A DNA stretch of 64,000 nucleotides, taken from Luteimonas terricola. GTDB taxonomy: Bacteria > Pseudomonadota > Gammaproteobacteria > Xanthomonadales > Xanthomonadaceae. The position numbers and the translations under genes were made by a program. This document shows, one piece after another, positions 17,591 through 46,380 of the stretch (position 1 is its first letter; the number at the start of each line of letters is the position of its first letter). The DNA is taken from positions 1 to 64,000 of the forward strand of contig NZ_SJRX01000006.1 of the NCBI RefSeq assembly GCF_004352845.1, given 5' to 3'. The notes beneath the pieces are model-generated. The model saw only the letters and a program-made list of their open reading frames with translations. It was not told the origin of the DNA and did no database searches.

Positions 17591-17669
17591 ACCCGTTGGC
17601 GGCAGCTGCGGTCACAGTCGCCGACCGGCCCGCGTCTATACTCCAGATCATTCATCGGGGAGAGTGCGG

Positions 17670-18629: not shown

Positions 18630-18632
18630 ACC

Positions 18633-19073: not shown

Positions 19074-19199
19074 CCTCAACCCTCCGTGGGAACAGCTCCC
19101 GCAGGATCGGGGGACGGGAACGGCAGCAGTGCCGATGGCGTGCCGGGCGGCGTCCGAAGGGCGATAATGGCCTTCCACCGCAAAAGGAACCGACATCCC

Positions 19200-20300: not shown

Positions 20301-20369
20301 TCCACCGCCCCGGCCCTTCGCTACACTAGCCGTCCACCCCCCCAGCAACGCTGTTTCCGGAGCAATGCG

Positions 20370-20762: not shown

Positions 20763-20801
20763 CAGACGCCATCGCCGCGCGACGCGCGGCATCGTGTTTC
20801 A

Positions 20802-30649: not shown

Positions 30650-30732
30650 GGCATGGTCTCCGCGAGCGCTGGGCTCGCCTTCGGCTGGTGGAAGCCAGTG
30701 TGCACCCGCTGACAACACGGGTCGCGCAGCGG

Positions 30733-30750
30733 CCATACGGATCAGTATGG
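30733..30750. promoter_or_regulatory. Palindromic operator candidate in the fadE-tetR gap
   Basis: CCATACGGATCAGTATGG has perfect 6-bp half-sites CCATAC / GTATGG around a 6-bp centre. A second related palindrome CCATGCGTATGG lies at 30810-30821. Both lie between fadE and the TetR-type gene, as expected for an autoregulated repressor. Confidence 0.6.
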
Positions 30751-30809
30751 ACATCGGCGCCGGGCGCTGTCAATGCGGCGCCCGGCAAAGTGGAGAGACT
30801 GTCCCGCAC

Positions 30810-30828
30810 CCATGCGTATGGATACACT
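30810..30828. promoter_or_regulatory. Second palindrome overlapping the tetR-family promoter
   Basis: CCATGCGTATGG (30810-30821) abuts TACACT (30823-30828), a likely -10 for the regulator gene whose ATG is 7 nt further on. Binding here would repress the regulator itself. Confidence 0.5.
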
Positions 30829-30834
30829 CGGGAA

Positions 30835-31416
30835 ATGAAGAAGCCTGCGGCAAAGAGCGAACGCAGCCGCCTCAGCGCCGAAGACTGGGCCGAGGCCGCA
30901 CTTGACCTGGTCGCCGAGCAGGGCGTGTCCGCGGTGGCGGTCGAGCCGCTCGCACGCCGGCTGGGCGTGACCAAGGGCAGTTTCTACTGGCACTTTCCGT
31001 CCCGCGACGCGCTGCTGCAGGCTGCGCTGGAGCGCTGGGAAGCGGTCGAGGAACAGGACGTGTTCGGCAAGCTCGAGGCCGTGCCCGATCCCCGTGAACG
31101 CCTGCGCGCGCTGTTCCAGATGGTCGCGCGCGAGTTCAAGTCGCACGTGGTCTACAGCGCGCTGCTCAAGGCACCCGACCATCCGGCCGTACAGCCGGTG
31201 ATCGACCGCGTCTCGCAGCGTCGGCTCGACTATCTCACCGCATCGTTCCGCCAGGCGGGCCTGGGCCGCACCGAGGCCCGGCACCGCGCGCGCCTGACCT
31301 ATGCCGCCTACGTCGGATTCCTGCAGCTGAACCTGCAGTTGCACCAGGCACGGATGCCACAGGAGGAATTCGACGAATACGTCGAGCACCTGACGCGCAC
31401 GCTGGTGCCGGGCTGA
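30835..31416 (+). CDS. TetR/AcrR-family transcriptional regulator
   Basis: 193 residues. The N-terminal helix-turn-helix covers WAEAALDLVAEQGVSAVAVE and LARRLGVTKGSFYWHFPSRDALLQ (residues ~15-60), the classic TetR DNA-binding fold. The C-terminal ligand-binding domain is helical and ends EEFDEYVEHLTRTLV. The gene is divergent from fadE with two CCATAC-type palindromes between. I infer a FadE-controlling repressor that senses an acyl-CoA or fatty acid, similar in role to PsrA/FadR-type TetR regulators. The very short leader (about 7 nt after the -10) suggests a nearly leaderless transcript. Confidence 0.9.
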   Translation: MKKPAAKSERSRLSAEDWAEAALDLVAEQGVSAVAVEPLARRLGVTKGSFYWHFPSRDALLQAALERWEAVEEQDVFGKLEAVPDPRERLRALFQMVAREFKSHVVYSALLKAPDHPAVQPVIDRVSQRRLDYLTASFRQAGLGRTEARHRARLTYAAYVGFLQLNLQLHQARMPQEEFDEYVEHLTRTLVPG

Positions 31417-31519
31417 GGCCGAAGCGGGGCTGCGTATTGCACTGCAGCACAACGCGGGGGTGTCGGCTGGCTAGAATTGGCGGTCCAGCCTGAAAAAGCG
31501 CGCTTCGGAGGCGCAGGAC

Positions 31520-33295
<1,776 letters not shown>

Positions 33296-33350
33296 CAGCG
33301 GCCCTGCGCTGACGGGGATCCGGGCGGTCGAACCGGCTCGCGGTCGGAGT

Positions 33351-34634
33351 TCAGGCCAGCGGCATGACGTCGAAGGCCAGGCTGATCCGCGGCCGGGTGC
33401 CGCGGTAGGGCCGCGTGTGGTGGAAGAAGTACGAGGGGAAGCTCACCAGTTCGCCAGTGCGCGGTGCATGGACGTGCCCGCGCGGCGGCGAGCGCATGGT
33501 GCCCGGTGGCGCATGCCCGAACAGCAGTGAGCCGTCGGACGGTCCGGGCTCCGCGTTCCCTGCGTCGACGTAAAGCACCCCGCTCAGCCAGCCCGCAGGG
33601 TGGATGTGCGGATCCTGGTGCCCGCCTGCGTGCAGCACGGTGGCCCAGGATTGCAGCCGCCAGCGGCGCGGCGCGGCGCGGCCCCAGGGATGCGCATGCA
33701 GCACTGGATCGGCCGACACCGCCCTGATGCGGTCGGCGACGAAGCGCTCGATGAAGGCGCCATACGCTCCAAAGGGCGAGTCCGGCGAGAGGTCGAGCAT
33801 CGCGCTCTGCTCGCCGCGGCGGGTGGAGCGTCCGGCGGGCTCCCAGTGCAGCGCCGGGTGCGCCAGCGTGGCTTCGCGCAGGGCATCCAGGTCGATCGCA
33901 TCGCCAGTGCCGCCGCCGGCGAGCAGCCTGTCATGGTCCATGAGCAGGTCGACCGTGGCGGCATCGCCAAGATCGTTCGCCGCCATGTAGAGGCCGGCCA
34001 GCGCGGTCTGGTCGCGCGGGTCCAGCTCCAGCGCGTGCGCGAAACGCCGGCGCGCCTCTTCCGCGTGGCCGGCGCCGAGCAGGGCGACGGCATGGTCGGT
34101 CAGCGCCGCGGGATCGGCGGGCGCGCGGCGTTCGGATTCGGCGAGCAGGGCCAGGCCTTCGTCGCGACGCCCGCTGCCATGCAGCGCATTGCCGAGGCTG
34201 CGCAGGATGCGCGGGTCGTGCGGGGCCGCGGCGCGGGCGCGCTCGAGGTAGGGAATGGCTTCGCCGTGGCGCCCCAGGCGCTGCAGGATCACGCCGGCGT
34301 TCGCCGAGGCTTCGGTGGCCGCCGGATCGATGCGCAGGAGCGCGGTGAAGTCCGCCAGCGCGTCTTCGGCGCGTTCGCAGGCGTTCAGGGCGAGCGCGCG
34401 GTTGAACAGCAGCGCGGGGTTGTCGGCGCGCGGACCGAGCGCGGCGGTGAAGTCCGCGATCGCCGCCTCGAAGCGGCTGCCGCGGGCATGGGCCGCACCG
34501 CGCAGCGCCAGCACGGACGCGTTGCCCGCGTGCACCGCCAGCGCGGCATCGAGGATGGCGACCGCGGCCAGGTCATCGTTGCGGCGCAGCGCGGCGCGGG
34601 CATCGAGTATCGCGGTATCCGGGGTGCTGTTCAT
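33351..34634 (-). CDS. TPR protein with C-terminal 2OG-Fe(II) oxygenase-like domain
   Basis: 427 residues. Residues ~1-220 are tetratricopeptide repeats (for example ALFNRALALNACERAEDALADF, GRHGEAIPYLERARAAAPHDP). Residues ~280-427 resemble the TIGR02466 putative 2OG-Fe(II) oxygenase family: HPWGR, HIHPAGWLSGVLYVD, GSLLFGHAPPG, ELVSFPSYFFHHTRPY and RISLAFDV. Likely metal ligands are the His of HIHP and FFHHTRPY. It is the last gene of the modification cluster, 54 nt after the GT41 gene. Substrate unknown; the TPR part suggests a protein or peptide partner. Confidence 0.75.
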   Translation of the reverse strand: MNSTPDTAILDARAALRRNDDLAAVAILDAALAVHAGNASVLALRGAAHARGSRFEAAIADFTAALGPRADNPALLFNRALALNACERAEDALADFTALLRIDPAATEASANAGVILQRLGRHGEAIPYLERARAAAPHDPRILRSLGNALHGSGRRDEGLALLAESERRAPADPAALTDHAVALLGAGHAEEARRRFAHALELDPRDQTALAGLYMAANDLGDAATVDLLMDHDRLLAGGGTGDAIDLDALREATLAHPALHWEPAGRSTRRGEQSAMLDLSPDSPFGAYGAFIERFVADRIRAVSADPVLHAHPWGRAAPRRWRLQSWATVLHAGGHQDPHIHPAGWLSGVLYVDAGNAEPGPSDGSLLFGHAPPGTMRSPPRGHVHAPRTGELVSFPSYFFHHTRPYRGTRPRISLAFDVMPLA

Positions 34635-34688
34635 GCGCTCCGCTGCACGTCAAAGCCCATGCATCATGGGAGCGCAGGCGCGCTGATT

Positions 34689-36638
34689 TCAAGTCGTCGC
34701 GTGCGGCCCCCGCCGCGCGGCCAGCTGCTCCACCGCCAGGTCTTCGATCGCCGCCGCCGCGCGGCGCGGGTCGAGCAGGCGGCTGCGTGCCACGGCGGCG
34801 GTGGTGCGGGCGCGAAGCTCGGCAAGCGCGACGGGATCACTGGCCAGCGCCACTGCGCGCGCGACGTAGGCGTCGGCGTCGGTGCACACCAGGTCCTCCA
34901 TGCCGAGGAAGCCGTTCAGGCCGGAGCCGAGTCGCGCGAGCGGGCTGTCGCCGCGGCGTGAGAGCAGCGGCAGCCCCGCGGCCGCGGCGGCGATGCCGGT
35001 GGCGCCGGCCTGGTAGCGGAAGGCATCGAGGAAGAGGTCGCAGCTCGCGGCGCGGTCGGCCTGGCGCTCGGCCGGCAGGTGCCCGCAGGGATGCAGGCGC
35101 GCGGGATCACCACCGTGCCGCGTCCAGGCCGCGAGGAACCCGCTGCGCGCCGCCTCGGGCAGGTACACCAGGAGGTGCGCGCGTGGCGCGCGCTGCAGGA
35201 TGCGCACCCAGGCGTCGACGAGCGCATCGTCCAACTTGTAGCTGTTGTTGAAGCTGGCCAGCAGCGGCACGCCCTCCGGCAGGCCGAGGCCGGCACGATC
35301 CGGGCGCCCGCTCGGCATCGCGCAGGCGGGCAGCATCAGGGTGTCCAGGCGCAGCGCTGCGTCCGACCAGGGCCAGGCGGCATCGACGGGCTGCACGTGG
35401 CGGTCGAGCACGATGCCGTCCAGCCACGGCGCCTGGTGGCCATGGATGAAACCCAGCCAGCCAAGCTGGAGTGCACAGGGTCGCAGTGCCAGCACTTCGG
35501 GGCGTGCGCCGGCGGTATAGCCGCCGAGGTCGAACAGCACGTCGATGCCGTCGTCGCGGATGCGGCGGGCGATGGCGTCGCTGGCCATCGCCTCGCAGTC
35601 GATGAAACTATCGCAGCCCGCGCGGATGGCGGTGGCAACGTCATCGTCGTGGTGGCGCAGCGAATAGGCGTGGACCTGGAAACGCGTGCGGTCGTGGGCG
35701 GCGAAATGCCCCGCGAGCAGGGTTCCAACGGCGTGCCGGCCGAAGTCGGCGGACAGGTAGCCGATGCGGATGCTCCCGCCGCCGACCGCGTGCGTTGGCG
35801 GCGGCAGCCGCGGCAGCGCGCGCGCACGGGCGAGGATGCGGCGCACCTGGCGTTCGAGCACCTGCGCGGTGGCGACGTCGCCGGTTTCCAGCCAGGACAT
35901 CGGGAACGGCTCCGGCCGGTCGTCATCGCCGATGGTGCCGGCCGCCAGGAGCGCATCGGCCATGGCGGCGTGGGCGCGGCTGTCGTCGAAGCGGCAGGCC
36001 ATGGCTTCGACCTGCGCCAGGCGCACCAGCACGTCGGCGCGCCCGGGGGCGGCGGCATGGGCCTGCAGGTAGGCGTCCCGCGCCACGGTGAGGTCGCCGG
36101 CGCGCTCGGCGCAGATGCCGACGTTCATGGCTTCGCCCGGATGCCCGGCCATGGCCTGGCGGTAGGCGGCGGTGGCTTCCTGCCAGCGGCACCGGGCCTG
36201 CAGCGCTTCGCCGAGGTAGTGCCAGGCTTCGAACAGGCGCGGCTCGATGGCCACAGCGGCCCGCAGCCAGGGCTCGGCCGAGGTGGCGTCGCCGGCGATC
36301 ACGGCCAGGCTTCCGGCGGCGAGCAGGGCCAGCGGATCGCGCGGTTCGATAGCGAGCGCTGTGGATGCGGCGTCACGTGCAGCGGCGACGTCGCCCAGGC
36401 CACGCAGCGCGAAGGCCAGCATTGTCGCCGCCTGCGCATCGCGCGCGCCCGCGGACAGCACCTCGCGCAGCAGTGGAATCGCCTCGCGCGGGCGTGCGCG
36501 CTGCAGCAACAGGGCGGCAAGGTCGCGGCGCAGCGGCTGGTCGCCGGGGGCCGCGGCCAGCGCCCGCATGTAGTGGCGCTCGGCGCCGTCGAGGTCGCCG
36601 GCCTGGTGCAGGCGGCGGGCCGCGCCGGCCTCATCCAC
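34689..36638 (-). CDS. TPR protein with SPINDLY-type (GT41) O-linked glycosyltransferase domain
   Basis: 649 residues. The N-terminal ~240 residues are TPR repeats (LDGAERHYMRALAAAPGDQP, GDVAAARDAASTALAIEPRDP). The C-terminal ~400 match bacterial O-GlcNAc-transferase-like proteins: IGYLSADFGRHAVGTLLAGH, GIDVLFDLGGYTAGARPEVL, QLGWLGFIHGH, LLASFNNSYKLDD, CDLFLDAFRYQAGATGIAAA and FLGMEDLVC. Such enzymes transfer a sugar from a nucleotide donor to Ser/Thr of proteins. The start is a GTG overlapping the methyltransferase stop by 8 nt, so translation is coupled. The acceptor is unknown; in other bacteria relatives modify flagellins or adhesins. Confidence 0.82.
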   Translation of the reverse strand: MDEAGAARRLHQAGDLDGAERHYMRALAAAPGDQPLRRDLAALLLQRARPREAIPLLREVLSAGARDAQAATMLAFALRGLGDVAAARDAASTALAIEPRDPLALLAAGSLAVIAGDATSAEPWLRAAVAIEPRLFEAWHYLGEALQARCRWQEATAAYRQAMAGHPGEAMNVGICAERAGDLTVARDAYLQAHAAAPGRADVLVRLAQVEAMACRFDDSRAHAAMADALLAAGTIGDDDRPEPFPMSWLETGDVATAQVLERQVRRILARARALPRLPPPTHAVGGGSIRIGYLSADFGRHAVGTLLAGHFAAHDRTRFQVHAYSLRHHDDDVATAIRAGCDSFIDCEAMASDAIARRIRDDGIDVLFDLGGYTAGARPEVLALRPCALQLGWLGFIHGHQAPWLDGIVLDRHVQPVDAAWPWSDAALRLDTLMLPACAMPSGRPDRAGLGLPEGVPLLASFNNSYKLDDALVDAWVRILQRAPRAHLLVYLPEAARSGFLAAWTRHGGDPARLHPCGHLPAERQADRAASCDLFLDAFRYQAGATGIAAAAAGLPLLSRRGDSPLARLGSGLNGFLGMEDLVCTDADAYVARAVALASDPVALAELRARTTAAVARSRLLDPRRAAAAIEDLAVEQLAARRGPHATT

Positions 36639-37647
36639 GCGCGGCAACCTCCAGCGTCCAGCCGAGCTTGGCGTCCGGCCGCTGCGCCAGTTCCCCGCAG
36701 GCCACATCGTGGCCCGCGGTGCGGAAGCATCCGGCAAGCCCGGCCAGCGCCTCGTCGTCGAGCAGCGAAGCGCGCAGCTGCAGCAGGCGCGCTTCCTCGT
36801 CGTCGAGCCATTGGCGGAGCGAAGCGAGTTGCCCGCGCGCGCCGTCCGGATCCGCGCCGGCGGTCCTCAGCGCATGCGAGATCGCGCGGGTGCTGCGCTC
36901 CACCACGTCGGCGGCGCCGGGTTCGGCGGCGCGGGCCAGCAGCGCCGCGGCGGCGTCGTTGAACGCCTTGCGCGCCGCCTCGGCGCCCGGGCTCGCGGCC
37001 AGCGCCGCGCGCGCGGCGGGCGTGCGGGCCCCGGCGAGCACCTCCAGCATCGCCGCGGCGGCAGGCAGCAGGGGACTGTCGCGCAGGACGTGGCCGAACC
37101 ACGGCAGCCGCCCGGCGGAGGTGCGCGCGATGAGGCTGTCGGTGGAATGCAGCACCATCGCCACGCCGCCGCGCCGGCCGATCACGCGCAGGGCTTCGGC
37201 GGCCGCGGCATCCCGCGGCGCGTATTCGAACGCGAACTGCGAACACAGGAGATCCACGCCGCCGTCGGCGAAGGGCAGGGCGGTAAACGAGGTGCGCGGA
37301 TGGAAGCGGATGTCGGCGAAGGCGCCTGCCCCGGCTTCGATGGCGTCACCAGGCGTGATGTCCGCAAGGTCCACGCCGTGCACGTCGAAGCCGATGCCGC
37401 GCGCCCGCGCCGCTTCCACGGCCAGCAGCGCCAGGGCTCCGTTGCCGGTGCCGATGTCGACCATCACGCTGCCGTTGGCGAGCCGACCGAACTGCGCCGC
37501 CCAGAACGCGCGGACCGGACCCTCGTAGTTCCCGTCCATGGCGGTCGAGCAGGAATGCAGCACGCCGCTGCGCCACAGGCGCGTCCACGGCGCGGCCTGC
37601 GCAGGGCTGCCCGCCCCCGGGTCCACCGGTACACCGCTGCCGCTCAT
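36631..37647 (-). CDS. Class I SAM-dependent methyltransferase
   Basis: 338 residues. The SAM-binding motif I is VMVDIGTGNGALALLAVEAA (about residue 60), followed by VHGVDLADI (motif post I) and an FADGGVDLLCSQFAFEYAPR block (motif II/III). The rest is helical with no known substrate-binding signature. Its ATG overlaps the stop of the oxygenase gene (ATGA) and its stop overlaps the GTG of the GT41 gene, placing it in the middle of a tightly coupled modification operon. Target (sugar, peptide or small molecule) unknown. Confidence 0.8.
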   Translation of the reverse strand: MSGSGVPVDPGAGSPAQAAPWTRLWRSGVLHSCSTAMDGNYEGPVRAFWAAQFGRLANGSVMVDIGTGNGALALLAVEAARARGIGFDVHGVDLADITPGDAIEAGAGAFADIRFHPRTSFTALPFADGGVDLLCSQFAFEYAPRDAAAAEALRVIGRRGGVAMVLHSTDSLIARTSAGRLPWFGHVLRDSPLLPAAAAMLEVLAGARTPAARAALAASPGAEAARKAFNDAAAALLARAAEPGAADVVERSTRAISHALRTAGADPDGARGQLASLRQWLDDEEARLLQLRASLLDDEALAGLAGCFRTAGHDVACGELAQRPDAKLGWTLEVAARG

Positions 37648-38318
37648 GCCGGCGGCTTCTTCCAGCGGCACCAGGCATTGAGCGCGACGACGATGCGCGG
37701 GCGCTCGCCGGTGTATGGGAACACCTCGTGCAGCAGGTAGGAGGGGAACGCGATCAACTGCCCGGCCTTGTGCTTGAGCTGCCAGGCACCGATGCGATAG
37801 GGGATCTGCAGGTGCTCGTTGGCCGGGTCGCGGTACATGTCGCTGCCCACCCGGGGATCGTGGAAACGCACCAGGCCACTCTGGGGTTCGCTGGCGTCGC
37901 CCGGGTCCACGCAATAGATCGCCGACCAGCTGGCGTTGGGATGGTTGTGCACCGACTGGAAGCCACCGCGGCGGGTGACGTGGAACCAGCTGTGCATGTC
38001 GACCTCGATGTTGTCCATCTGCGCGTCGTCGAAACCGCTGATGCCGCGGACGAAGTTGTCGAGCAGCGAGTCGATGTGGGAGAACAGCGCCCGCACCGGG
38101 GCCTCGGGCCGGCGGTGCAGGTAGAAGTTGCTCTCGAAGATTCCGTGCTGGGTGTCGCGCGCCTGGATGTCGCGATGGCGATCGCCTTCGGCCTCGAGTC
38201 CGAGGAACAGCTCCCGCAGGCCGGCGTTCAGCGCCTCCGCCCCGGGTATCTGCGCCTGCAGCAGGGGCACGGCATACAGCGGGTGCACGGTAGCCTGGAC
38301 TTCGTCGGTCTGCGTCAT
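37644..38318 (-). CDS. Putative 2OG-Fe(II) oxygenase (TIGR02466-like)
   Basis: 224 residues, a single double-stranded beta-helix domain. The iron-binding region reads FQSVHNHPNASWSAIYCVD (His of HNHP), with an RFHDPR segment, AFPSYLLHEVFPYTGERPRI (distal His and Arg for 2-oxoglutarate) and VALNAWCRW at the end. The pattern matches TIGR02466, a family of predicted non-haem iron oxygenases. The start at 38318 overlaps the sulfotransferase stop (ATGA); an in-frame ATG at 38360 would overlap it more. A second oxygenase of related type is fused to TPRs at the end of the cluster. Confidence 0.82.
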   Translation of the reverse strand: MTQTDEVQATVHPLYAVPLLQAQIPGAEALNAGLRELFLGLEAEGDRHRDIQARDTQHGIFESNFYLHRRPEAPVRALFSHIDSLLDNFVRGISGFDDAQMDNIEVDMHSWFHVTRRGGFQSVHNHPNASWSAIYCVDPGDASEPQSGLVRFHDPRVGSDMYRDPANEHLQIPYRIGAWQLKHKAGQLIAFPSYLLHEVFPYTGERPRIVVALNAWCRWKKPPA

Positions 38319-39715
38319 GGCGAAGGGGACTCGGGTTGCCGGGATACGGAATGATGCCATTTCGCCGCCGCTCCCCGGACTGCGGCCAGGAAGATGGCGG
38401 ATGCGGGAAGGAAGCGCCGGGCGCTTCCGATGGAGCGGGTGTGCACCGGCTCGCGCACCTGGGCTTCGCTGTAGGTCGCGGTCTGCACGTCCTGGCGCCA
38501 GAACTCGGGGATCGACGGATCCCAGTCGAGGCCCAGGCGTGACAACAGGGGTCGCAGGCTGGCCTCGGGCGCGCGTGCGAGGTCTTCGAAGCGCAGGTGC
38601 AGCACGCGCGTGGGGCTGCGTTCGCGCAGGCCGCGAAGGTGGCTGGCGATGGCGCCCGCATAGTGGCCGAGGTCGGCGCCTTCGCAGGCGTAGGCGCTGC
38701 CCGACTCGAAGTCGTGCATGTGTATGGAGGTCGCGCAGTCATCCAGCCCGCGCTCAAGGTGCACGACGAGGGCGTCCGGGAAGCGGGCGAGCGCGTGACC
38801 GGCGTGTTCCGCGTTTCCGGGAAGCTTGTCGACCACCACGGGTGCGCCGTCCGCAAGATCGGCGAGCGCGGCGCGGTACCAGTCACGGGCATGGGCGCCG
38901 CTGCGGGCGGGGGGCGGGTCGGCGGCGAGCGCGGGCAGCAGGCCCTGTTCGCCGACGTTGGCGATCGACGGGTGCGCGCCCAGCAGGCTGGCAAGCAGGG
39001 TGGTCCCGCTGCGGGGAAGGCCGACGATGAAGACTTCGCTGCAGGGCCTGCCCCGGTCGGGCAACGGCGCCAGGCTGCGGTCGTGGGCGAGTCGTGCCTC
39101 GAATGCGGCACGATCCCAGGGGCCGATGCGGCCGCGCTTCCGCGCCTGCGCCGCGGCGGCCAGCGCGAACGCGCGCTGCGGATCCCGCGGCGCAACGGCG
39201 CGCGCCAGTGCGAAGCCGGCCTTCTCGCGGTCGTAGTCGGTGGCACCCGCGGCGAGGATGCGCTCCAGCGCCTGCACCGCATGGTCCGGCATGGCGCCGG
39301 GGGCTTCGAATTCGGCGTACTTCTGCAGGGCATCGACCCAGTGGGGATGGCGCCCGATGACTTCCCGGAAGCGTGCGCGGGCCTCGTCGCCGCGGCCGAC
39401 GGCCTGCGCGACCTGGGCGGCCAGGAGTTGGACGTCGGGGGGCGTGGCGGCGCCGATCGGCCAGCCGCCGGTCACCCGCCATGCGCGCTGGGGCCGGTTG
39501 CCGAGCAGCATGGCCTGCAGCCAGGCGCCGAGTACCTGCGGGTTCGGCGCTGCTGCGCCGTGCATGCGGTCGAGTGCCCGCAGCCGGGCATAGGGATCGT
39601 TGCGCAGGGCTGGATCGGCCAGCAGTGCGCCCAGCATCGCCGGATCGGCGCGGGCGAGGCGTGCCTCGACGGCGGGATCCGGATGCGGTGCCCACGGAGG
39701 ATCGGGTCGGTCCAT
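38315..39715 (-). CDS. TPR-sulfotransferase
   Basis: 466 residues. The N-terminal ~210 residues are TPR-like helices (ARARFREVIGRHPHWVDALQ, HAVQALERILAAGATDYDRE). The C-terminal domain is a sulfotransferase with the PAPS 5'-phosphosulfate loop GLPRSGTTLLASLLGAHP. It also has VVDKLPGNAEHAG and VHLERGLDDCATSIHMHDF for 3'-phosphate binding. Such proteins are common in Xanthomonadaceae, sphingomonads and Caulobacter near TonB receptors; their substrates are mostly unknown. The ATG at 39715 follows GGAGCAGGGG, placed immediately after the U-tract of the receptor's terminator. It is first in the overlapping modification operon. Confidence 0.82.
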   Translation of the reverse strand: MDRPDPPWAPHPDPAVEARLARADPAMLGALLADPALRNDPYARLRALDRMHGAAAPNPQVLGAWLQAMLLGNRPQRAWRVTGGWPIGAATPPDVQLLAAQVAQAVGRGDEARARFREVIGRHPHWVDALQKYAEFEAPGAMPDHAVQALERILAAGATDYDREKAGFALARAVAPRDPQRAFALAAAAQARKRGRIGPWDRAAFEARLAHDRSLAPLPDRGRPCSEVFIVGLPRSGTTLLASLLGAHPSIANVGEQGLLPALAADPPPARSGAHARDWYRAALADLADGAPVVVDKLPGNAEHAGHALARFPDALVVHLERGLDDCATSIHMHDFESGSAYACEGADLGHYAGAIASHLRGLRERSPTRVLHLRFEDLARAPEASLRPLLSRLGLDWDPSIPEFWRQDVQTATYSEAQVREPVHTRSIGSARRFLPASAIFLAAVRGAAAKWHHSVSRQPESPSP

Positions 39716-39724
39716 CCCCTGCTC

Positions 39725-39755
39725 CAAAAAAAGACGGCCCGCAATGCGGGCCGTC
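39725..39755 (-). terminator. Intrinsic terminator between the TonB receptor and the sulfotransferase
   Basis: On the minus strand GACGGCCCGC-att-GCGGGCCGTC is followed by an eight-nucleotide run of U. It lies 24 nt past the receptor stop and directly before the sulfotransferase ribosome site. Only read-through transcripts, or a promoter hidden in the receptor gene, can express the five modification genes. Confidence 0.92.
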
Positions 39756-39779
39756 CAATGTTACGCAATTACCGCTGGA

Positions 39780-42449
39780 TCAGAAGTTCTGCTCGTAGCG
39801 GATGTAGGGGGTGCGACCCCAGATGTTGTACAGCGTGTTGTCGTAGTACGGGAAGCCATACAGCGAGGCGTTGAACGGAGGCATCTTGTTGCCGACGTTG
39901 CGGACGCCCATGGCCACCTTGGCGTTCCACGGCAGCTTCACGCTGCCCTGCAGGTCCCAGGTCGTCCACGACGGCAGGCGGCGGTTGACTCGGGCGCCGG
40001 CAGCGTTGGTGGTGATTTCACCGCTGTCGCCGATGTAGTTGCCGATGGCGACGGCCGACCAGTCACCCGAATCCCAGCCCAGCGAAAGCTGCGCGCGGTT
40101 CTCGGGCTGGCCGGGATCGCCGATCTGCTCCTGCGTCGGGGACAGGATCGGGGTGAAGTTGTACTCCAGCATGTGCGACACGGCAAGGCGGGTATTGAAC
40201 GTGCCCATGGCTTCGGTGTCGAGGCGGTAGCTGGCCTCGAGGTCGATGCCGCGGACGGTCTGCAGCGCACCGTTGTCGATCGGCAGCAGGATCTGCTGCG
40301 GCACGCCCGGCATCATGGTGGTGCCGTCGGGCGCCAGGAAGCCAGGGGTACGGGTCACGCCATAGCTCGGACGGCCCTCGTCGCCGAACTGGAACGCCAG
40401 CGCGCGCGGCACGTTGGAGATCACGTTCTCCAGCTCGATGTCGTAGTAGTCGAGCGCGAACGACATCGCGTCGGTCGGGCTCCACACCACGCCCAGGCCC
40501 CAGTTCTTCGACTCTTCCGGCTTCAGGTTCGAGTTGGAAGTGACCAGCCACTGGTACTGGCCCTCGGTCAGGCAGGGATCGACCGGGTAGGGGTTGTAGG
40601 TCGCGTCGCCCGTGTTCGTACGTGCGGTGCGGAGCGCGGCGCAGGCCAGGGCGTCGCCACCGGCGAGGCCGGCAGACGGCACGGGCGGGCTGTTGAGGTT
40701 GGTCGTGGACGACGCACCGTACAGGTTGGCCATGCTCGGGGCCTTGAAGCCCTTGCCCCACGAGCCACGGACCAGCAGGCTGTCGATCGGGCGGAACTCC
40801 ATCGACACGCGCGGCGAGAACTTGCTGCCGACGTCGTTGTAGCTGTCGTAGCGGCCGGCCAGCGTCACGCTGAAGGTGTCGAGGATCGGGAACAGCGACT
40901 CGAAGTAGGCGGCGTAATAAGCGCGCTCGCCACCACCCGGGGCACCCGCCGAACCGAAGACGTTGCCGGCGGCACTCTGTGCGTCATAGAGCTGCAGGAA
41001 GCGGTCGTCGCGGTATTCGAAGCCGGTGACGAAGCCGACCGGGCGGTCGCCGATGTCGAACAGGTCGAAACCGATGTTGCCGTCGACGGTGAAGGTGCGC
41101 TGCTTGGACTCCACGTACACGGTGTGGCCGACCAGCGGAGCCGCGGCGGTGACGCTCGGATGGGTGGGGATGAAGGGGTTGTAGTCGCCGGAGTCGATCA
41201 GCTCCTGCAGGACGCTGCCGATGCCGTAGTTGTAGTTCACCGACGACTGGTTGGACTCGCCGTGGCCAGCCGTGAGCTGCCAGTCGGCGCCGCCGAACAT
41301 GTCGACGATGCCGCGCAGGCCGACGCTGTACTCGCGGAAGGTGTCAGCGCGCAGCGAGTCGCGGGTGCCGAGCGGGGTGAAGCGGTAATACAGGGTGCCG
41401 TCGGCGCCGTGCGGGTTGTGCGGATTGTCCGCGGAGATGGTCGGGAAGGTGTCGACCGGCGCCGAGGCGTACACGCCCAGGCTGTCGGTGTTCGACGCCA
41501 GCGCGCGGAAGAACAGCGAGGTGTTGTCGGTGATGTCGTAGTTGCCGTTCAGCAGCATGGCATTGCGGTTCATCGACGACTCGTTGGCCGAGGTGGCGCC
41601 GTGGTCGAAGCCGCAGGTGCCGTTCGCCTGCATGACACTGTTCTCGAACGAGTCGCAGTTCGGGGCGGAGACGATGCCACGGCCGGGGATGAAGATGTTG
41701 GCCGCGGAGTTGAAGGTGCTCAGGCCCCAGGCCAGGCCGGCCCCGGTGACGATGCCCTTGATGTCGCGGTTGTACATCATCTCGCGTTCCATGTGGTCCA
41801 GAACGAAAGTGACGTTGCCGCGGTCGGAGCTGATGCCGCCGGCCACGCTGGCGTAGTTGCCGTTCGGGCCGACCTTCGGGCTTTCGACGCCGCCGGAGAT
41901 GGTCATGCCTTCGTAATCCTTGCGCAGGATCACGTTGACCACGCCGCCGATCGCGTCGGAGCCGTACACCGCGCCCGCGCCTTCACGCAGGATTTCGATG
42001 CGCTCGACCGCCGAGGTCGGGATCATGTTGATGTTGGCGGCGGCGCCGTTCAGCGCGCCCGAGGTCGTCATGCGACGGCCGTCCAGCAGCACCAGGGTGT
42101 AGGACGAGCCGAGGCCGCGCAGGCTGATGGTGGCCTGCGAACCGGTCGACGAGCCCGAAGCCTCGCGGGTGGAGCCGAACGAGTTGTAGACGGAGTTGCG
42201 CAGGAAGTCGGCGACCGAGATCTCGCCAGCGGCGTCCATGTCGGCACGGCTGATGACGGTGATCGGGTTCGGGCCTTCGATTTCAGCGCGCTTGATGCGC
42301 GAGCCGGTCACCTCGATGCGATCGAGGGTGGTGGCTTGCTGTTCCGAGCTGTCCTGCGCGAACGCGACGCCGGTACCGGCGAGGGCGGTCGCACCGGACA
42401 CGAGCGCGAAAGTGATCGCGTCGCGGAGCTTGGTGGTCTTGACGGTCAT
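39780..42449 (-). CDS. TonB-dependent outer-membrane receptor
   Basis: 889 residues with signal peptide (ITFALVSGATALAGTGVAFA-QD). A TonB-box-like TLDRIEVTGSRIKRAE is followed by a plug domain: NPITVISRADMDAAGEISVA, ATISLRGLGSSYTLVLLDGR, SAVERIEILREGAGAVYGSD and AIGGVVNVILRKDYEG. A 22-strand type barrel contains LKPEESKNWGLGVVW and ends TPYIRYEQNF with a terminal aromatic. It matches the large receptors typical of Xanthomonadaceae, which take up plant or peptide-derived compounds; ligand unknown. A GGAGAG ribosome site precedes the ATG. A strong terminator follows, then modification genes; an unusual barrel protein lies upstream. Confidence 0.92.
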   Translation of the reverse strand: MTVKTTKLRDAITFALVSGATALAGTGVAFAQDSSEQQATTLDRIEVTGSRIKRAEIEGPNPITVISRADMDAAGEISVADFLRNSVYNSFGSTREASGSSTGSQATISLRGLGSSYTLVLLDGRRMTTSGALNGAAANINMIPTSAVERIEILREGAGAVYGSDAIGGVVNVILRKDYEGMTISGGVESPKVGPNGNYASVAGGISSDRGNVTFVLDHMEREMMYNRDIKGIVTGAGLAWGLSTFNSAANIFIPGRGIVSAPNCDSFENSVMQANGTCGFDHGATSANESSMNRNAMLLNGNYDITDNTSLFFRALASNTDSLGVYASAPVDTFPTISADNPHNPHGADGTLYYRFTPLGTRDSLRADTFREYSVGLRGIVDMFGGADWQLTAGHGESNQSSVNYNYGIGSVLQELIDSGDYNPFIPTHPSVTAAAPLVGHTVYVESKQRTFTVDGNIGFDLFDIGDRPVGFVTGFEYRDDRFLQLYDAQSAAGNVFGSAGAPGGGERAYYAAYFESLFPILDTFSVTLAGRYDSYNDVGSKFSPRVSMEFRPIDSLLVRGSWGKGFKAPSMANLYGASSTTNLNSPPVPSAGLAGGDALACAALRTARTNTGDATYNPYPVDPCLTEGQYQWLVTSNSNLKPEESKNWGLGVVWSPTDAMSFALDYYDIELENVISNVPRALAFQFGDEGRPSYGVTRTPGFLAPDGTTMMPGVPQQILLPIDNGALQTVRGIDLEASYRLDTEAMGTFNTRLAVSHMLEYNFTPILSPTQEQIGDPGQPENRAQLSLGWDSGDWSAVAIGNYIGDSGEITTNAAGARVNRRLPSWTTWDLQGSVKLPWNAKVAMGVRNVGNKMPPFNASLYGFPYYDNTLYNIWGRTPYIRYEQNF

Positions 42450-42620
42450 CTCTTCTCTCTCCAAATGAGTCTTGGGTAAATCCCATGGGAGCTCACCGGT
42501 GAAGTCAAGATCGACGCCAAGCCCGGCAAGCCGATGCCGATAGTAGCCCTGCCGGAGCAAAAATTAAAGTGTTGTTAATAATCGCGGATTCCGTGAAAGA
42601 AATCCGGATGAATCAAGGAC
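42450..42620 (-). promoter_or_regulatory. Upstream region of the TonB receptor gene
   Basis: The 171-bp gap contains an AT-rich patch (42559-42582; minus strand GATTATTAACAACACTTTAATTTT in outline) that is unusual for this GC-rich window and probably holds the receptor promoter. TTTAAT could be the -10. I could not place a convincing -35. Confidence 0.4.
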
Positions 42621-43478
42621 TTAGAGGTCCTGCTCGTACCGGATGTAAGGCACGGTACCTTCGTCGTTGCGGCCATTGAGGCTGGGCGCGAACGGATTTC
42701 GGCCCTTGGTGACGAGATTGTCGGCGCCCACGGTGAGCTGTCCGCTCCAGGGCGTGCGCCAGGTCAGGCCGAGTCCAAGGCCTTCCCACTTGGGCTGGCC
42801 GGGGGTCTCGACGACCTGGCCGACGATGCTGGCACCGAAGCGGCCATAGCCGCCGCCGATCGACAGGGTGTGCGAAGTCCAGGCATCGCCGATGCCGAGG
42901 TTGGTGGCCTCGGCGGGGGTCATCAGCGTGGCCTTGGCCACGGTGCCGGCAATGGCGACCACGCCCTCGCGGCCGATGTTGTGCTGCGCGAACACGGTCA
43001 GGTCGTTGAGGTCGACCGTGGCACCCGCGCCGCGGGAACCAGGGGTCAGCCAGGCGGGGAGCGTGCCGCTGCCGCTGCCGGCGCTGAGGCCCAGCCGGGT
43101 GTTCCGGCCGGCCTTGAAGGCCGCCGTGCCGCTGGCATGCGTGCCGCCATCGTCTTCGAAGCTGGCAAGCATGCAGTTGTTGGCGAGGTTGCCCAGGGCA
43201 CTGGCCAGGCCGGACTGGCGGTCGCAGAACACGCCCAGGGAGTTGCCGGCGTCGATCCCGAAGGCGGCATCGAGCGCGTTGTCGCCGAAGCCCGAAGCGG
43301 CGCCGGGGTTGGCCGGTTCAAGCAGGAGCAGGGCCTCGATCTTGCCGCTGGACTGGTTCCACACCGGCAGCACGGCCTGGTCGCGCTTGCCGCCCTGCAA
43401 CGCCTGCGCATGCGCGCCCGTTGCCACGCCGAGGGCGAGGGCAAGCGTCAGGGACAGTTGTGCAAGGCGCGACTTCAT
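42621..43478 (-). CDS. Outer-membrane beta-barrel protein with receptor-like C-terminus
   Basis: 285 residues; signal peptide LTLALALGVATGAHA-QA. The body alternates glycine-rich strands (HTLSIGGGYGRFGASIVGQV, GLGLGLTWRTPWSGQLTVGA). It ends ADNLVTKGRNPFAPSLNGRN and then TVPYIRYEQDL. The last strand is nearly identical to the end of the neighbouring TonB receptor (TPYIRYEQNF), including the preceding (G/A)xxN(V/L)...PF.AS/PSL.G hairpin. Two Cys occur (CDRQ, NNCML). It is far too short for a receptor and lacks a plug. The gene stands alone upstream of the receptor with its own AT-rich leader. Function unknown; a cognate partner of the receptor is my inference. Confidence 0.7.
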   Translation of the reverse strand: MKSRLAQLSLTLALALGVATGAHAQALQGGKRDQAVLPVWNQSSGKIEALLLLEPANPGAASGFGDNALDAAFGIDAGNSLGVFCDRQSGLASALGNLANNCMLASFEDDGGTHASGTAAFKAGRNTRLGLSAGSGSGTLPAWLTPGSRGAGATVDLNDLTVFAQHNIGREGVVAIAGTVAKATLMTPAEATNLGIGDAWTSHTLSIGGGYGRFGASIVGQVVETPGQPKWEGLGLGLTWRTPWSGQLTVGADNLVTKGRNPFAPSLNGRNDEGTVPYIRYEQDL

Positions 43479-43544
43479 GACGTGCCGATAGACCCCCAGG
43501 TTGAGGCGGAAGTTCCGCCCCGATCATGACTTCGACTCTAGTCG

Positions 43545-43560
43545 ATTTATAATTCCTTAA
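43545..43560 (-). promoter_or_regulatory. Probable promoter patch for the barrel protein gene
   Basis: On the minus strand TTGTTAAGGAATTATAAAT lies about 65-85 nt upstream of the ATG. TATAAA is a good -10, but TTGTTA is too close to serve as its -35. This AT-rich patch resembles the one before the receptor gene. Confidence 0.35.
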
Positions 43561-43575
43561 CAATCCCCTCGGCGT

Positions 43576-44475
43576 TCACTGCAGTCCTGCAGGGGGTTCC
43601 ATTGGGCGCTGGGCCGAGGTGAAGAGATTGTGTATGGCCTCTGCATCGAACAAATAGCCCTGGCCGCAGAACTCGCATCGCACCGTGGCCGTCCCTTCCA
43701 TCAACGCGGCTTCCGCCTCCTCCCGGCCCAGCGCGGCCAGCATCGCTTCCACCCGGCCACGCGAACATGAACAGGCGAAGGCCAGGGGGCGACCGCCGAC
43801 CAGCTCCGGCGCCTCCTCGTGGAACAGGCGGTGCAGCAGCGTGGGGCCCGGCGTGGCCAGCAATTCGGTGGTATCCAGGGTCGAGAACAGCGCGCTGGCG
43901 CGGTTCCAGCCATCGTCGTCGCCACCGTCGGCGGGGAGCTTCTGCAGCATGAGGCCGGTAGCGTGGTCGGTGCCGGCAGCCAGCAGGATCCGCGTGGGCA
44001 ATTGCTCGGATCGCGTGAAGTAGCCTTCGAAGGCCTCCGCCAGGACGGGGGCGTCCAGAGGTACCAGGCCCTGGTAGCGGGCGGCGTCGCGGCTGCCGAT
44101 GCCGGGGTTTTCGATGGTGATGGCGAGCAGGGCATCGTTGCCGAGGTCCTCGAGCCCGCCGATGTCGCCAGCGTCCTCGGCCATGCGCGCCAGGCCGCGC
44201 AGGGTGCCGGCCGCGGTGCATTCGGCGAACAGGGTGCGCAGTGCGCCCTCGCCGCGCAGCTGCACCGACAGCCGGCCGTCCACCTTGACGTGGCCGGTGA
44301 ACAGCGCCGAGGCCACCGCGGCCTCGCCGAGCAGGCCGCGCACCACCGGCGGGTAGTCGTCGCTGGAGGCGATGCGGCGCCAGGTTTCGCCCAGGTGCAC
44401 GTGCACGCCGCGCACGCCGGCGTGCGGCAGCAGGAAGCGGCTCAGGTGGTCACGGCTTTCGATGGAAGCGGTCAT
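43576..44475 (-). CDS. hslO: Redox-regulated chaperone Hsp33
   Basis: Cytoplasmic holdase activated by oxidative unfolding. 299 residues with the zinc-switch cysteines CSCSRGR and CEFCGQGY near the C-terminus (CxC...CxxC). The N-terminal domain contains SRFLLPHAGVRGVHVHLGET, LLGEAAVASALFTGHVK and LSVQLRGEGALRTLFAE. The start at 44475 gives MTASIESRDHLSRFLLP. It is divergent from mtgA and is followed by the barrel-protein promoter region. Confidence 0.95.
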   Translation of the reverse strand: MTASIESRDHLSRFLLPHAGVRGVHVHLGETWRRIASSDDYPPVVRGLLGEAAVASALFTGHVKVDGRLSVQLRGEGALRTLFAECTAAGTLRGLARMAEDAGDIGGLEDLGNDALLAITIENPGIGSRDAARYQGLVPLDAPVLAEAFEGYFTRSEQLPTRILLAAGTDHATGLMLQKLPADGGDDDGWNRASALFSTLDTTELLATPGPTLLHRLFHEEAPELVGGRPLAFACSCSRGRVEAMLAALGREEAEAALMEGTATVRCEFCGQGYLFDAEAIHNLFTSAQRPMEPPAGLQ

Positions 44476-44560
44476 TCGGGATCCGGTGCGATTGTGGCGG
44501 GGGCCGGCGGCTGGATAATCGTCGCATCGGCCCGCGCGTGGGCGAACGGTGGAGATGGGG

Positions 44561-45313
44561 ATGGCGCGTGGCAGGAACAAGGACGTGGAGCCGGCATCGT
44601 CCCCGGCGCCCCGGCGTCGGCGCAGCCGCTGGCACTGGCTGTGGAAGCTGCCGCTGCTGCTCGCGTTGCTGAGCATCGCGCAGGTGCTGGTGCTGCGCTT
44701 CGTCGACCCGCCGTTCTCTTCGTTCATGGCCATCCGCCAGTTCGAGGCGCTGCGTGGCGGCGACACCGGTTTCCGTATCGCCTACGACTGGCGCGACCTG
44801 GACCGGATCGCGCCTTCGCTGCCGCTGGCAGCGGTGGCGGCCGAGGACCAGAACTTCGCCAGCCACCGCGGCTTCGACCTCGCGGCGATCGAGCATGCGC
44901 TGGAGAGCAACGCCGACGGCGGGCGCATTCGCGGCGGCAGCACGATCAGCCAGCAGCTGGCGAAGAACCTGTTCCTCTGGGGCGGCCGCAGCTGGGTGCG
45001 CAAGGGCGCCGAGGCCTGGTACACGCTGTGGATCGAGCTGCTGTGGCCGAAGCAGCGCATCCTCGAGGTCTACGTCAACGTGGCCGAGTTCGGTGACGGC
45101 ATCTACGGTGCGCAGGCGGCGGCGCGCAGTTACTGGGGCAAGGACGCGGACGCCCTGTCGAACAGCCAGAGCGCGCGCCTGGCCGCGGTGCTGCCGAGCC
45201 CGCGACGCTACAGCGCGCACCGCCCCGGGCCCTGGGTGCAGCGGCGCACGCAGTGGATCGAGCGCAACATGCGCAACCTTGGCGGCGAGGCCTGGCTGGA
45301 GCGGCTGGAATGA
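44561..45313 (+). CDS. mtgA: Monofunctional biosynthetic peptidoglycan transglycosylase
   Basis: Polymerises lipid II into glycan chains at the inner membrane. 250 residues: one membrane anchor ([20 protein letters not shown]) and a GT51 domain. Landmarks are [20 protein letters not shown] (catalytic Glu in EDQNF), [52 protein letters not shown] and [10 protein letters not shown]. No penicillin-binding domain is present. The ATG at 44561 is 6 nt after a GGAG; an in-frame ATG and GTG lie just upstream but overlap the ribosome site. Its stop lies close to or overlaps the glycosyltransferase start. Confidence 0.95.
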
Positions 45314-45351
45314 TGCCGCGGCGCATGGCCCGCCCGCGCTACGATGACGGC

Positions 45352-46380
45352 ATGACACGCGACAGACTGACCGTGGTGGTGGCGGCCTTCAACGAGGACC
45401 AGTCGCTGCCGGAGCTGCATCGCCGCCTGGCCGCCGTGCTGGCCGGACTGGCCGACGACGACGGCGTGGATGGCGGCGTGCTCTACGTCGACGACGGCAG
45501 TACCGACGGCACCTGGGGCTTGCTGCGGGACCTGGCCGCGACCGACCCGCGGGTGTCGCTGCTGCGCCTGTCGCGCAACTTCGGCAAGGAGGCGGCGCTG
45601 ACCGCGGGCCTGGACCGGGTGCTGGACGGCGCCGCGCTGATCCTGGATGCCGACGGCCAGGATCCGCCGGAGCTGATCCCGGAGTTCGTCGCGCGCTGGC
45701 GCGAGGGGTATGACGACGTCCACGGCACGCGCCTGGCGCGCGAGGGCGAGGGCTGGTTCAAGCGCGCGTCCGCGCACGCCTTCTACCGGGTGATGCAGCG
45801 CCTGTCGAAAACACCCATGCCCACCGACACCGGCGATTTCCGCCTGCTGTCGCCGCGTGCGCTGGCCGCCCTGCGCGAACTGCGAGAGCGTCACCGCTTC
45901 ATGAAGGGCCTGTTCGGCTGGATCGGCTTCAACCGCGTGAGCATTCCCTACCGGCGCGAGCCGCGGCTGGCCGGCAACAGCAAGTTCAACGCATGGCGGC
46001 TGTGGAACTTCGCGCTCGAAGGCATCACCAGCTTCTCGACCGCGCCGCTGCGGCTGGCGACCTACCTCGGCGTCGCCACCGCGCTGGTGGCCTTCGGCTA
46101 CGGCCTGTGGATCATCATCAAGGCCTTGTTCTGGAGTGACCCGGTCGCCGGCTGGCCGACGATGATGGCGGTGATCCTGTTCCTGGGCGGCGTGCAGCTG
46201 ACGGCGCTCGGGCTGATCGGTGAATACCTCGGCCGGCTTTACGAAGAGTCCAAGCAGCGGCCGCTGTACCTGGTCGACACCTGGTCGCCGGCCGAAGGGG
46301 TATGCTCGGCCATGCCACCCATGATCGAGCGAGGCCGCGATGCGCACGGTGAGGCAGCTGCTGGAGTCCAAGGGTCCTGA
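45352..46380 (+). CDS. Family 2 membrane glycosyltransferase (GtrB/DPM1/ArnC type)
   Basis: 342 residues. A GT2 catalytic domain with LTVVVAAFNEDQSLPELHR, LYVDDGSTDGTW, LRLSRNFGKEAALTAGLD, LDADGQDPPELI and TDTGDFRLLSPRAL is followed by two membrane helices. This is the pattern of enzymes that load a sugar onto undecaprenyl phosphate for lipid, O-antigen or teichoic modification. The start is uncertain. ATG 45352 matches family N-termini, but an in-frame ATG at 45310 overlaps the mtgA stop (ATGA) and has a GGAG site. The C-terminal tail runs 41 nt into the CBS gene. Sugar unknown. Confidence 0.82.
   Translation: MTRDRLTVVVAAFNEDQSLPELHRRLAAVLAGLADDDGVDGGVLYVDDGSTDGTWGLLRDLAATDPRVSLLRLSRNFGKEAALTAGLDRVLDGAALILDADGQDPPELIPEFVARWREGYDDVHGTRLAREGEGWFKRASAHAFYRVMQRLSKTPMPTDTGDFRLLSPRALAALRELRERHRFMKGLFGWIGFNRVSIPYRREPRLAGNSKFNAWRLWNFALEGITSFSTAPLRLATYLGVATALVAFGYGLWIIIKALFWSDPVAGWPTMMAVILFLGGVQLTALGLIGEYLGRLYEESKQRPLYLVDTWSPAEGVCSAMPPMIERGRDAHGEAAAGVQGS

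What the first reader, a model, noticed from the sequence alone, without database searches (positions are those of the whole stretch)
33351..43478. Receptor-plus-modification locus: TonB receptor, barrel protein, and five coupled tailoring genes
A TonB receptor and a small barrel protein sit beside a coupled run of TPR-sulfotransferase, 2OG-Fe(II) oxygenase, methyltransferase, SPINDLY-type GT41 and TPR-oxygenase. The first four of these overlap by 4-8 nt. Four distinct tailoring chemistries plus three TPR scaffolds suggest stepwise modification of one protein or peptide. Known families: PF13469, TIGR02466-like, class I MTase, GT41. The idea that they act on the receptor, the barrel protein or an imported peptide is inference.
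Basis: partly seen in the sequence, partly recalled or inferred. Interest (0 to 1): 0.7.

Follow-up and report, generated by a model that had tools for sequence, protein, structure and literature searches.

The report
Swappable receptor slot with tailoring enzymes
At one fixed place in the chromosomes of Luteimonas and many of its relatives, different outer-membrane TonB receptors are swapped in and out, often beside genes for enzymes that probably add chemical groups to proteins or peptides, and several of these enzymes follow the receptor lineage rather than the neighbouring genes.

Summary
Receptor-tailoring linkage is conserved. Hsp33-XOO1806 and PEP carboxykinase frame a slot; of 40 loci from 35 genera, 31 hold a receptor after XOO1806, 26 a tailoring gene, 25 both. 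Contents are exchanged: sister Luteimonas keep XOO1806 at 81-82% identity but carry receptors only 29-40% identical. Methyltransferase, GT41 and TPR-oxygenase need 2, 1 and 3 changes on the receptor tree of 55 loci, but 12, 9 and 9 on the XOO1806 tree; the sulfotransferase does not follow the receptor. A terminator follows 69 of 76 receptors, so this is not a plain operon. Best reading: cytosolic enzymes dedicated to a receptor type, most likely decorating the receptor before export. The substrate is unproven: no clear residue signature was found, 18 same-clade receptors away from the slot lack the set, and a modified peptide ligand remains a serious rival.

The parts
42621..43478 (-). XOO1806-family protein (NF052276), 285 aa with a signal-peptide-like N-terminus (by eye); C-terminal ~60 aa resemble the last strands of TonB receptors; conserved anchor gene of the slot
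   Evidence: (147 of 149 family genomes)
39780..42449 (-). TonB-dependent receptor, 889 aa from the ATG (open frame to 42560); TonB-box-like TTLDRIEVTG; C-terminus PYIRYEQNF
39732..39756 (-). terminator-like hairpin directly after the receptor (11-pair stem, T run), 16 nt ahead of the sulfotransferase ATG
38315..39715 (-). sulfotransferase PF13469 with a weak TPR match (open frame to a TTG at 39727), loop FIVGLPRSGTTLLASLLGAHP
37644..38318 (-). 2OG-Fe(II) oxygenase, PF13759/TIGR02466; start ATGA overlaps the sulfotransferase stop by 4 nt (open frame to 38360)
36631..37647 (-). class I SAM methyltransferase, 338 aa, with a helical C-terminal part not covered by a Pfam match; overlaps the oxygenase by 4 nt
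34689..36638 (-). TPR-GT41 (OGT/SPINDLY-like), GTG start, overlaps the MTase by 8 nt; His and Lys line up with XcOGT
33351..34634 (-). TPR plus PF13759 2OG-Fe(II) oxygenase
43576..44766 (-). Hsp33 (open frame; start not settled), conserved flank of the slot
31520..33295 (+). GTP-type PEP carboxykinase, conserved other flank of the slot

Best explanation
The region between Hsp33-XOO1806 and PEP carboxykinase is a receptor slot that keeps its frame while its contents are exchanged. The usual occupant is a TonB-dependent receptor, most often with cytosolic enzymes that belong to its type; here a sulfotransferase, a 2OG oxygenase, a methyltransferase, a GT41 and a TPR-2OG oxygenase. Shown: the framed slot, differing contents in sister species, co-inheritance of MTase/GT41/TPR-oxygenase with the receptor lineage, the MTase-GT41 overlap in most GT41 loci, and terminator-like hairpins after the receptor. 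Inferred: the enzymes are protein- or peptide-directed (two carry clear TPRs, the GT41 resembles XcOGT/OGT, the sulfotransferase's best solved relatives are a polyketide-synthase sulfotransferase and protein-tyrosine sulfotransferases). They are made in small amounts by read-through of the terminator. They modify the freshly made receptor in the cytosol before Sec export, in the way HMW1C modifies HMW1. The result would be a receptor surface with a type-specific decoration that alters ligand choice, or recognition by phages or bacteriocins.
For: Slot synteny and content. Exchange: L. padinae and L. colneyensis (L066, L067; XOO1806 82% and 81%) carry 29% receptors, whereas L025 from another genus has XOO1806 47% but receptor 68%. 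Co-divergence: TBDR~MT Mantel 0.75 (20 loci) and 0.87 (22 loci), partial 0.73 given PEPCK and 0.86 given XOO1806; MT~GT41 0.90 and TBDR~GT41 0.46 on 10 loci. Parsimony changes on 55 loci, receptor tree against XOO1806 tree: MT 2/12, GT41 1/9, TPROX 3/9, AspH 7/13, OXY 9/13. The 8-nt MT-GT41 overlap is found in the window and 7 of 9 other loci (the script took the in-frame start nearest the upstream stop). Terminator after 69 of 76 receptors against 6 of 400 random stretches. In three whole genomes 7 of 12 full-length sulfotransferases lie within 6 kb of a plug domain, chance about 5-9% each; both sulfotransferases of this genome directly follow receptors. Outside the family, 5 of 12 genomes with the MTase have a receptor within 4 kb of it (L153, L156, L159, L160, L161) and a sixth has one about 6 kb off (L152), none with XOO1806 in the fetched stretch. 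Precedent: HMW1C, PMC3983070, passages.
Against: No direct evidence of any modification. 18 receptors of the same clade elsewhere lack the set: none of the enzymes by BLAST within the ~8 kb fetched on each side, and by profile search only one weak sulfotransferase match, 75 bits in L116; three of these views are cut by contig ends (L116, L120, L121). Of the 48 best receptor matches (289 bits or more) in 149 genomes, 27 have the MTase nearby and 21 do not. 32 tailored against 18 lone receptors gave only four weakly distinguishing columns. The sulfotransferase label does not follow the receptor tree (14 changes, shuffle mean 16.9, p 0.08). In 6 of 12 genomes of other families the MTase has no receptor in the fetched stretch. 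Some slots hold a receptor and no tailoring gene (6 of 40).
Confidence: 0.4

Rival explanations
1. The enzymes tailor the receptor's ligand, a small peptide or protein made by the cell or by neighbours, which the receptor then imports, as in metallophore or RiPP loci that carry their own TonB receptor (recalled).
For: Enzyme sets differ by receptor type. The MTase profile reaches the lanthipeptide MTase LahSB and sugar/polyketide MTases among many others. In PMC10040529 (passages) a table of sphingomonad gene clusters lists, under neighbouring numbers (1738-1748), a lasso-peptide B2 protein, two sulfotransferases, an aspartyl beta-hydroxylase, PqqD, asparagine synthase and a glycosyltransferase, which suggests that such tailoring enzymes can go with lasso peptides; physical linkage is not stated in what I saw.
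Against: No precursor, synthetase, exporter or inner-membrane importer is seen between XOO1806 and PEPCK in the window. Gaps between the window genes are at most 171 nt. GT41 and TPR scaffolds fit protein substrates.
Confidence: 0.25
2. The enzymes modify other exported or outer-membrane proteins, including unlinked receptors of the same clade and XOO1806; the slot receptor is one of several clients.
For: One genome (G040) has four receptors of the clade and one linked tailoring set. XOO1806 is adjacent and shares the receptor-like C-terminus. MTase~XOO1806 distances keep a weak correlation given the receptor (partial 0.26, p 0.006).
Against: MT, GT41 and TPROX follow the slot receptor's lineage. 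XOO1806 is in 147 of 149 genomes whereas the MTase reaches 75 bits in 36 of 149.
Confidence: 0.18
3. Tailoring genes and receptor are independent genes that share an exchange hot spot and have no functional tie.
For: The slot also takes in transposases and an integrase; the sulfotransferase varies independently of the receptor; same-clade receptors elsewhere do without the enzymes.
Against: Receptor-MTase co-divergence beyond the flanks (partial Mantel 0.73 and 0.86), one change of GT41 on the receptor tree, and the association at other places in other families.
Confidence: 0.1

Closest known systems
HMW1C-HMW1 (GT41 N-glycosyltransferase and its co-encoded exported adhesin)
   Same: A GT41 beside an exported surface protein; HMW1C glycosylates its partner in the cytosol before Sec export (PMC3983070, passages)
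   Different: HMW1C has an AAD fold in place of TPRs (same passages); here the GT41 has TPRs and is nearest to XcOGT among solved structures; the partner is a TonB receptor; four further chemistries; substrate not shown
RaxST-RaxX tyrosine sulfation in Xanthomonas (recalled; not compared here)
   Same: A sulfotransferase encoded beside its exported substrate
   Different: RaxX is a small peptide with its own exporter; no TonB receptor or companion tailoring enzymes (all recalled)
TonB receptor-carbohydrate utilisation (CUT) loci of Xanthomonas (PMC1790865, search listing and passages)
   Same: Xanthomonad receptors in gene sets, with a tLDXVXV TonB box
   Different: Passages describe receptors with sugar-metabolism genes and a transporter; none of these lies in the window's slot; the words sulfotransferase, hydroxylase and halogenase do not occur in its main text
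XcOGT (XCC0866; PDB 2JLB, 2VSN)
   Same: Best solved relative of the GT41 (E 4e-54) with His and Lys aligned
   Different: Its own biological substrate and gene context were not examined here

Membership tests
TonB-dependent receptor | plug domain, barrel domain, TonB box | tested here: met
   PF07715 78.6 bits and PF00593 154.9 bits; TTLDRIEVTG fits the tLDXVXV box quoted in PMC1790865
XOO1806 family (NF052276) | score over the curated cut-off, full length | tested here: met
   373.5 bits, cut-off 280, profile 1-274 of 274
Outer-membrane barrel (for XOO1806) | closed beta-barrel fold | tested here: inconclusive
   C-terminal profile reaches receptor last strands at E 1e-10; AlphaFold pLDDT 37
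TIGR02466 2OG oxygenase | score over the curated cut-off | tested here: met
   37644-38318: 64.0 bits, cut-off 62.5. The TPR-oxygenase 33351-34634 is below it (41.3) but over PF13759's cut-off
GT41 (OGT/XcOGT type, TPR) | GT41 catalytic domain, TPRs, catalytic His and Lys | tested here: met
   PF13844 148 bits; TPR_19 and TPR_2 over cut-off; His in DFGRH and Lys in NNSYK align with XcOGT (that these are the catalytic residues is recalled)
HMW1C-type N-glycosyltransferase | AAD N-terminal fold instead of TPR | tested here: not met
   N-terminus is TPR; NF049992 only 12.9 bits against a cut-off of 1000
Protein-tyrosine sulfotransferase | PAPS loop and catalytic Glu with overall fold | tested here: inconclusive
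   Only about 58 residues around FIVGLPRSGTTLL align, E 1e-4; a polyketide-synthase sulfotransferase scores slightly better
CUT (carbohydrate utilisation) locus | sugar-degrading enzymes and inner-membrane transporter beside the receptor | tested here: not met
   None between XOO1806 and PEPCK in the window
RiPP/metallophore locus | precursor peptide or synthetase and exporter | tested here: inconclusive
   No synthetase or exporter in the window's slot; gaps at most 171 nt; no systematic search for very short precursors was made

The most novel reading that the evidence does not exclude
Lysobacteraceae carry a hypervariable receptor slot in which TonB receptors are exchanged together with receptor-specific sets of cytosolic protein-modifying enzymes, so that each lineage displays a receptor with its own sulfate, methyl, hydroxyl and sugar decoration. 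It would be an outer-membrane protein counterpart of exchangeable O-antigen loci (recalled comparison), driven by phages, bacteriocins or ligands.
Probability: 0.33. Interest if true: 0.85.

Novelty: new variant of a known kind. Interest (0 to 1): 0.62.

Why it matters
If true, TonB receptors, main gates of the outer membrane, would be post-translationally decorated by dedicated enzymes, and the decoration would be swapped along with the receptor. That would bear on ligand choice, on phage and bacteriocin sensitivity, and on what the many TPR-sulfotransferases and 2OG oxygenases of these bacteria do. The cassette makes the question testable with one deletion and mass spectrometry. I saw no description of such a locus in the listings, nor in the passages of the four papers opened; the library lacks most subscription papers and all bioRxiv preprints, so this is weak evidence of novelty.

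Tried and rejected
XOO1806 structure: AlphaFold on 14 rows gave pLDDT 37, unusable. MTase structure: three rows, pLDDT 61; the helical C-terminal part is confident but none of 193 PDB matches reached E 0.001. Residues that mark tailored receptors: only four weak columns in 32 against 18 receptors. A known RNA element: no Rfam match over gathering score in 30000-46000. Plasmid origin of 33351-37647: only three short matches, two labelled TPR protein and one GT41. XOO1806 as a peptide precursor: 44- and 45-aa open frames with its C-terminus in one genome (L130 = L043) look like decaying tandem copies; no other free-standing frame of under 100 aa of this kind appeared in the loci then held. NCBIfam MTase matches: for the window's MTase all are far below cut-off and give no function.

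Limits and selection: the 20 loci and the 20 were fetched mostly because the MTase was there, so '31 of 31 receptors over 370 bits have the MTase' is not an unbiased rate; searches are the converse test. The 40 loci counted as a genus sample are 5 of the window's genus, 2 of one other genus and one each of 33 more, and are somewhat depleted in MTase loci because those were set aside first. The genome search scored at most 14, 6 and 7 candidates per genome, so these counts are lower bounds. In the sulfotransferase count I joined the window's two pieces and dropped three weak rows of G038, one of them just over the cut-off (30.6 bits; with it 7 of 13). In the 55-locus tree I left out repeats of a genome (L065, L070), masked or partial loci (L022, L064, L076), receptors under 600 aa and loci without XOO1806; an enzyme label means a BLAST match over a fixed score within 9 kb of the receptor, so an AspH gene on the far side of Hsp33 counts and weak MTases (L019) do not. 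The trees are FastTree, without support tests. L022, L110, L152 and L154 hold runs of N.
Full report
WHAT IS THERE. On the minus strand, in transcription order, lie an XOO1806-family protein (42621-43478), a TonB-dependent receptor (39780-42449 from its ATG), a PF13469 sulfotransferase (38315-39715), a TIGR02466 2OG-Fe(II) oxygenase (37644-38318), a class I methyltransferase (36631-37647), a TPR-GT41 (34689-36638) and a TPR-PF13759 oxygenase (33351-34634). Sulfotransferase, oxygenase, MTase and GT41 overlap by 4, 4 and 8 nt. Hsp33 lies upstream and a convergent PEP carboxykinase downstream. None of the five enzymes shows a signal peptide by eye. The window is contig C15 of a 3.04-Mb genome. 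The nearest named relatives by XOO1806 are an unnamed MAG and Luteimonas arsenica (86% each), so the genus is very probably Luteimonas.

A FRAMED SLOT. XOO1806 is found in 147 of 149 genomes of the family, in 117 over the family's cut-off, and usually sits next to Hsp33. I fetched the neighbourhood in 60 genomes. In the 40 loci (35 genera), 18 reach PEP carboxykinase inside the stretch, 31 hold a receptor after XOO1806, 26 hold at least one of six tailoring families and 25 hold both. The families are sulfotransferase, TIGR02466-type oxygenase, MTase, GT41, TPR-oxygenase and a TPR aspartyl/asparaginyl hydroxylase identified. In all 60 loci the figures are 48, 45 and 42. More than half of the 40 stretches do not reach PEP carboxykinase, so the far frame was seen in only part of them. 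In a minority of genomes the region after XOO1806 holds other genes (for example L012, L028, L059, L062).

EXCHANGE. L. arsenica has the same six-gene cassette (receptor 88%). L. padinae, L. colneyensis and L. granuli keep XOO1806 at 82%, 81% and 82% but have receptors of 29%, 29% and 40% identity at the same place, with no tailoring gene, one sulfotransferase and one MTase respectively. Conversely L024, L025, L027, L104 and L105 have XOO1806 at 47-58% but receptors at 64-68%. So the receptor cassette appears to move while the frame stays. Transposases (L004, L105) and a tyrosine recombinase (L009) occur inside the slot.

RECEPTOR AND ENZYMES TRAVEL TOGETHER. On trees of 55 slot loci the MTase label needs 2 changes on the receptor tree and 12 on the XOO1806 tree; GT41 1 and 9; TPR-oxygenase 3 and 9; AspH 7 and 13; TIGR02466 oxygenase 9 and 13; sulfotransferase 14 and 13. 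Label shuffles on the receptor tree average 18.5, 8.5, 10.9, 15.4, 16.6 and 16.9. Thus MTase, GT41 and TPR-oxygenase follow the receptor closely, AspH and the small oxygenase in part, the sulfotransferase not. Distances agree: TBDR~MT Mantel 0.75 on 20 loci and 0.87 on 22; partial 0.73 given PEPCK and 0.86 given XOO1806; MT~GT41 0.90 but TBDR~GT41 0.46 (p 0.04) on 10 loci. TBDR~XOO1806 is 0.31 and falls to -0.07 given the MTase; MT~XOO1806 is 0.39 and stays at 0.26 (p 0.006) given the receptor. The 8-nt MT-GT41 overlap is found in the window and 7 of 9 other loci, the other two having 14 and 4 nt.

CONVERSE TESTS. MTase hits of 75 bits or more number 37 in 36 of 149 genomes. By my reading, 23 of the 37 lie within 16 kb of XOO1806, and 6 more lie within about 10 kb of PEP carboxykinase (L089-L093, L101). 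Of the remaining 8, five have a receptor nearby (L094, L095, L098, L100, L102), two do not (L097, L099) and one ends at a contig edge (L096). Starting from the receptor, the 48 best matches (289 bits or more) in the 149 genomes split into 27 with the MTase within about 7 kb and 21 without. I fetched all 21. Eighteen stand alone away from the slot: no tailoring family by BLAST, and by profile only one weak sulfotransferase match (L116, 75 bits). One (L113) ends at a contig edge, and two (L125, L128) lie beside PEP carboxykinase with a sulfotransferase but no MTase. So the tie holds at the slot and not for paralogues elsewhere. In a draw of 274 genomes of the class, 14 carry the MTase at E 1e-25, 12 of them outside the family. 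In 5 of these 12 a receptor lies within 4 kb, with GT41, oxygenases or sulfotransferases in four of the five (L156, L159, L160, L161); a sixth (L152) has a receptor about 6 kb off, and six have none in the stretch. In three whole genomes 7 of 12 full-length sulfotransferases lie within 6 kb of a plug domain where chance gives 5-9% each. All five misses are in one genome, G075. Both sulfotransferases of the window's genome directly follow a receptor gene.

EXPRESSION DESIGN. A G+C-rich hairpin with a T run follows the receptor stop in 69 of 76 receptors, against 6 of 400 random stretches; none of 25 sulfotransferases, 27 small oxygenases, 41 MTases, 10 GT41s or 24 AspH-cluster matches has one, while 1 of 11 TPR-oxygenases and 13 of 72 XOO1806 genes do. 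In the window the hairpin ends 16 nt before the sulfotransferase ATG. This would make receptor abundant and enzymes scarce if they are read through; a promoter inside the receptor gene is not excluded.

WHAT IT DOES. The GT41 is nearest to XcOGT and OGT and keeps the aligned His and Lys. The sulfotransferase shows only local similarity to polyketide-synthase and protein-tyrosine sulfotransferases. TPRs, and the AspH of other cassettes, fit protein or peptide substrates. The window's slot holds no synthetase, exporter or obvious precursor. The likeliest client that is present and co-inherited is the receptor, modified in the cytosol as HMW1 is by HMW1C (PMC3983070, passages). This step is inference. 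Against it stand the lone paralogues, the lack of a residue signature, the MTases without receptors, and a table in PMC10040529 (passages) in which sulfotransferases and an aspartyl hydroxylase stand under numbers next to a lasso-peptide gene, which fits the peptide-ligand rival.

XOO1806. A profile of its last 70 residues reaches receptor C-termini at E down to 1e-10, so it probably ends in receptor-like outer-membrane strands; its fold is unresolved. Its near-universal presence makes it an anchor rather than the dedicated substrate, though the residual correlation with the MTase keeps that open.

VERDICT. Chemistry and substrate remain open.

Noticed in passing
L130:6138-6552 (same place in L043): Downstream of XOO1806 in one genome lie a 44-aa and a 45-aa open frame that repeat its C-terminus, the second degraded; they look like decaying partial tandem copies.
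   Followed up: partly
L129:7083-11866 (window's own genome, contig C11): A second receptor-sulfotransferase pair: a carbon-nitrogen hydrolase, a TonB receptor and a TPR-sulfotransferase in tight succession on one strand.
   Followed up: partly
L090-L093 and L113, beside PEP carboxykinase: An ECF sigma factor, a small protein without a Pfam match and a DUF4097 toastrack protein stand between PEP carboxykinase and the receptor.
   Followed up: no
L108, about 17200: A match to the TPR aspartyl/asparaginyl hydroxylase lies on the other side of Hsp33, near the transglycosylase, so the variable region may extend past Hsp33.
   Followed up: no
window 17392-17538: A partial plug-domain match below cut-off in a 188-aa frame, possibly a remnant of another TonB receptor; the long open frame on the other strand at 17652-20792 has odd codon composition.
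   Followed up: no
G040 (loci L026, L109, L110): One genome holds four receptors of the window's clade (47-48% identity) but only one linked MTase/GT41 set.
   Followed up: partly
PMC10040529, table of clusters: A table of sphingomonad genes lists sulfotransferases and aspartyl beta-hydroxylase under numbers next to a lasso-peptide B2 protein; a lead for the peptide-ligand reading.
   Followed up: no
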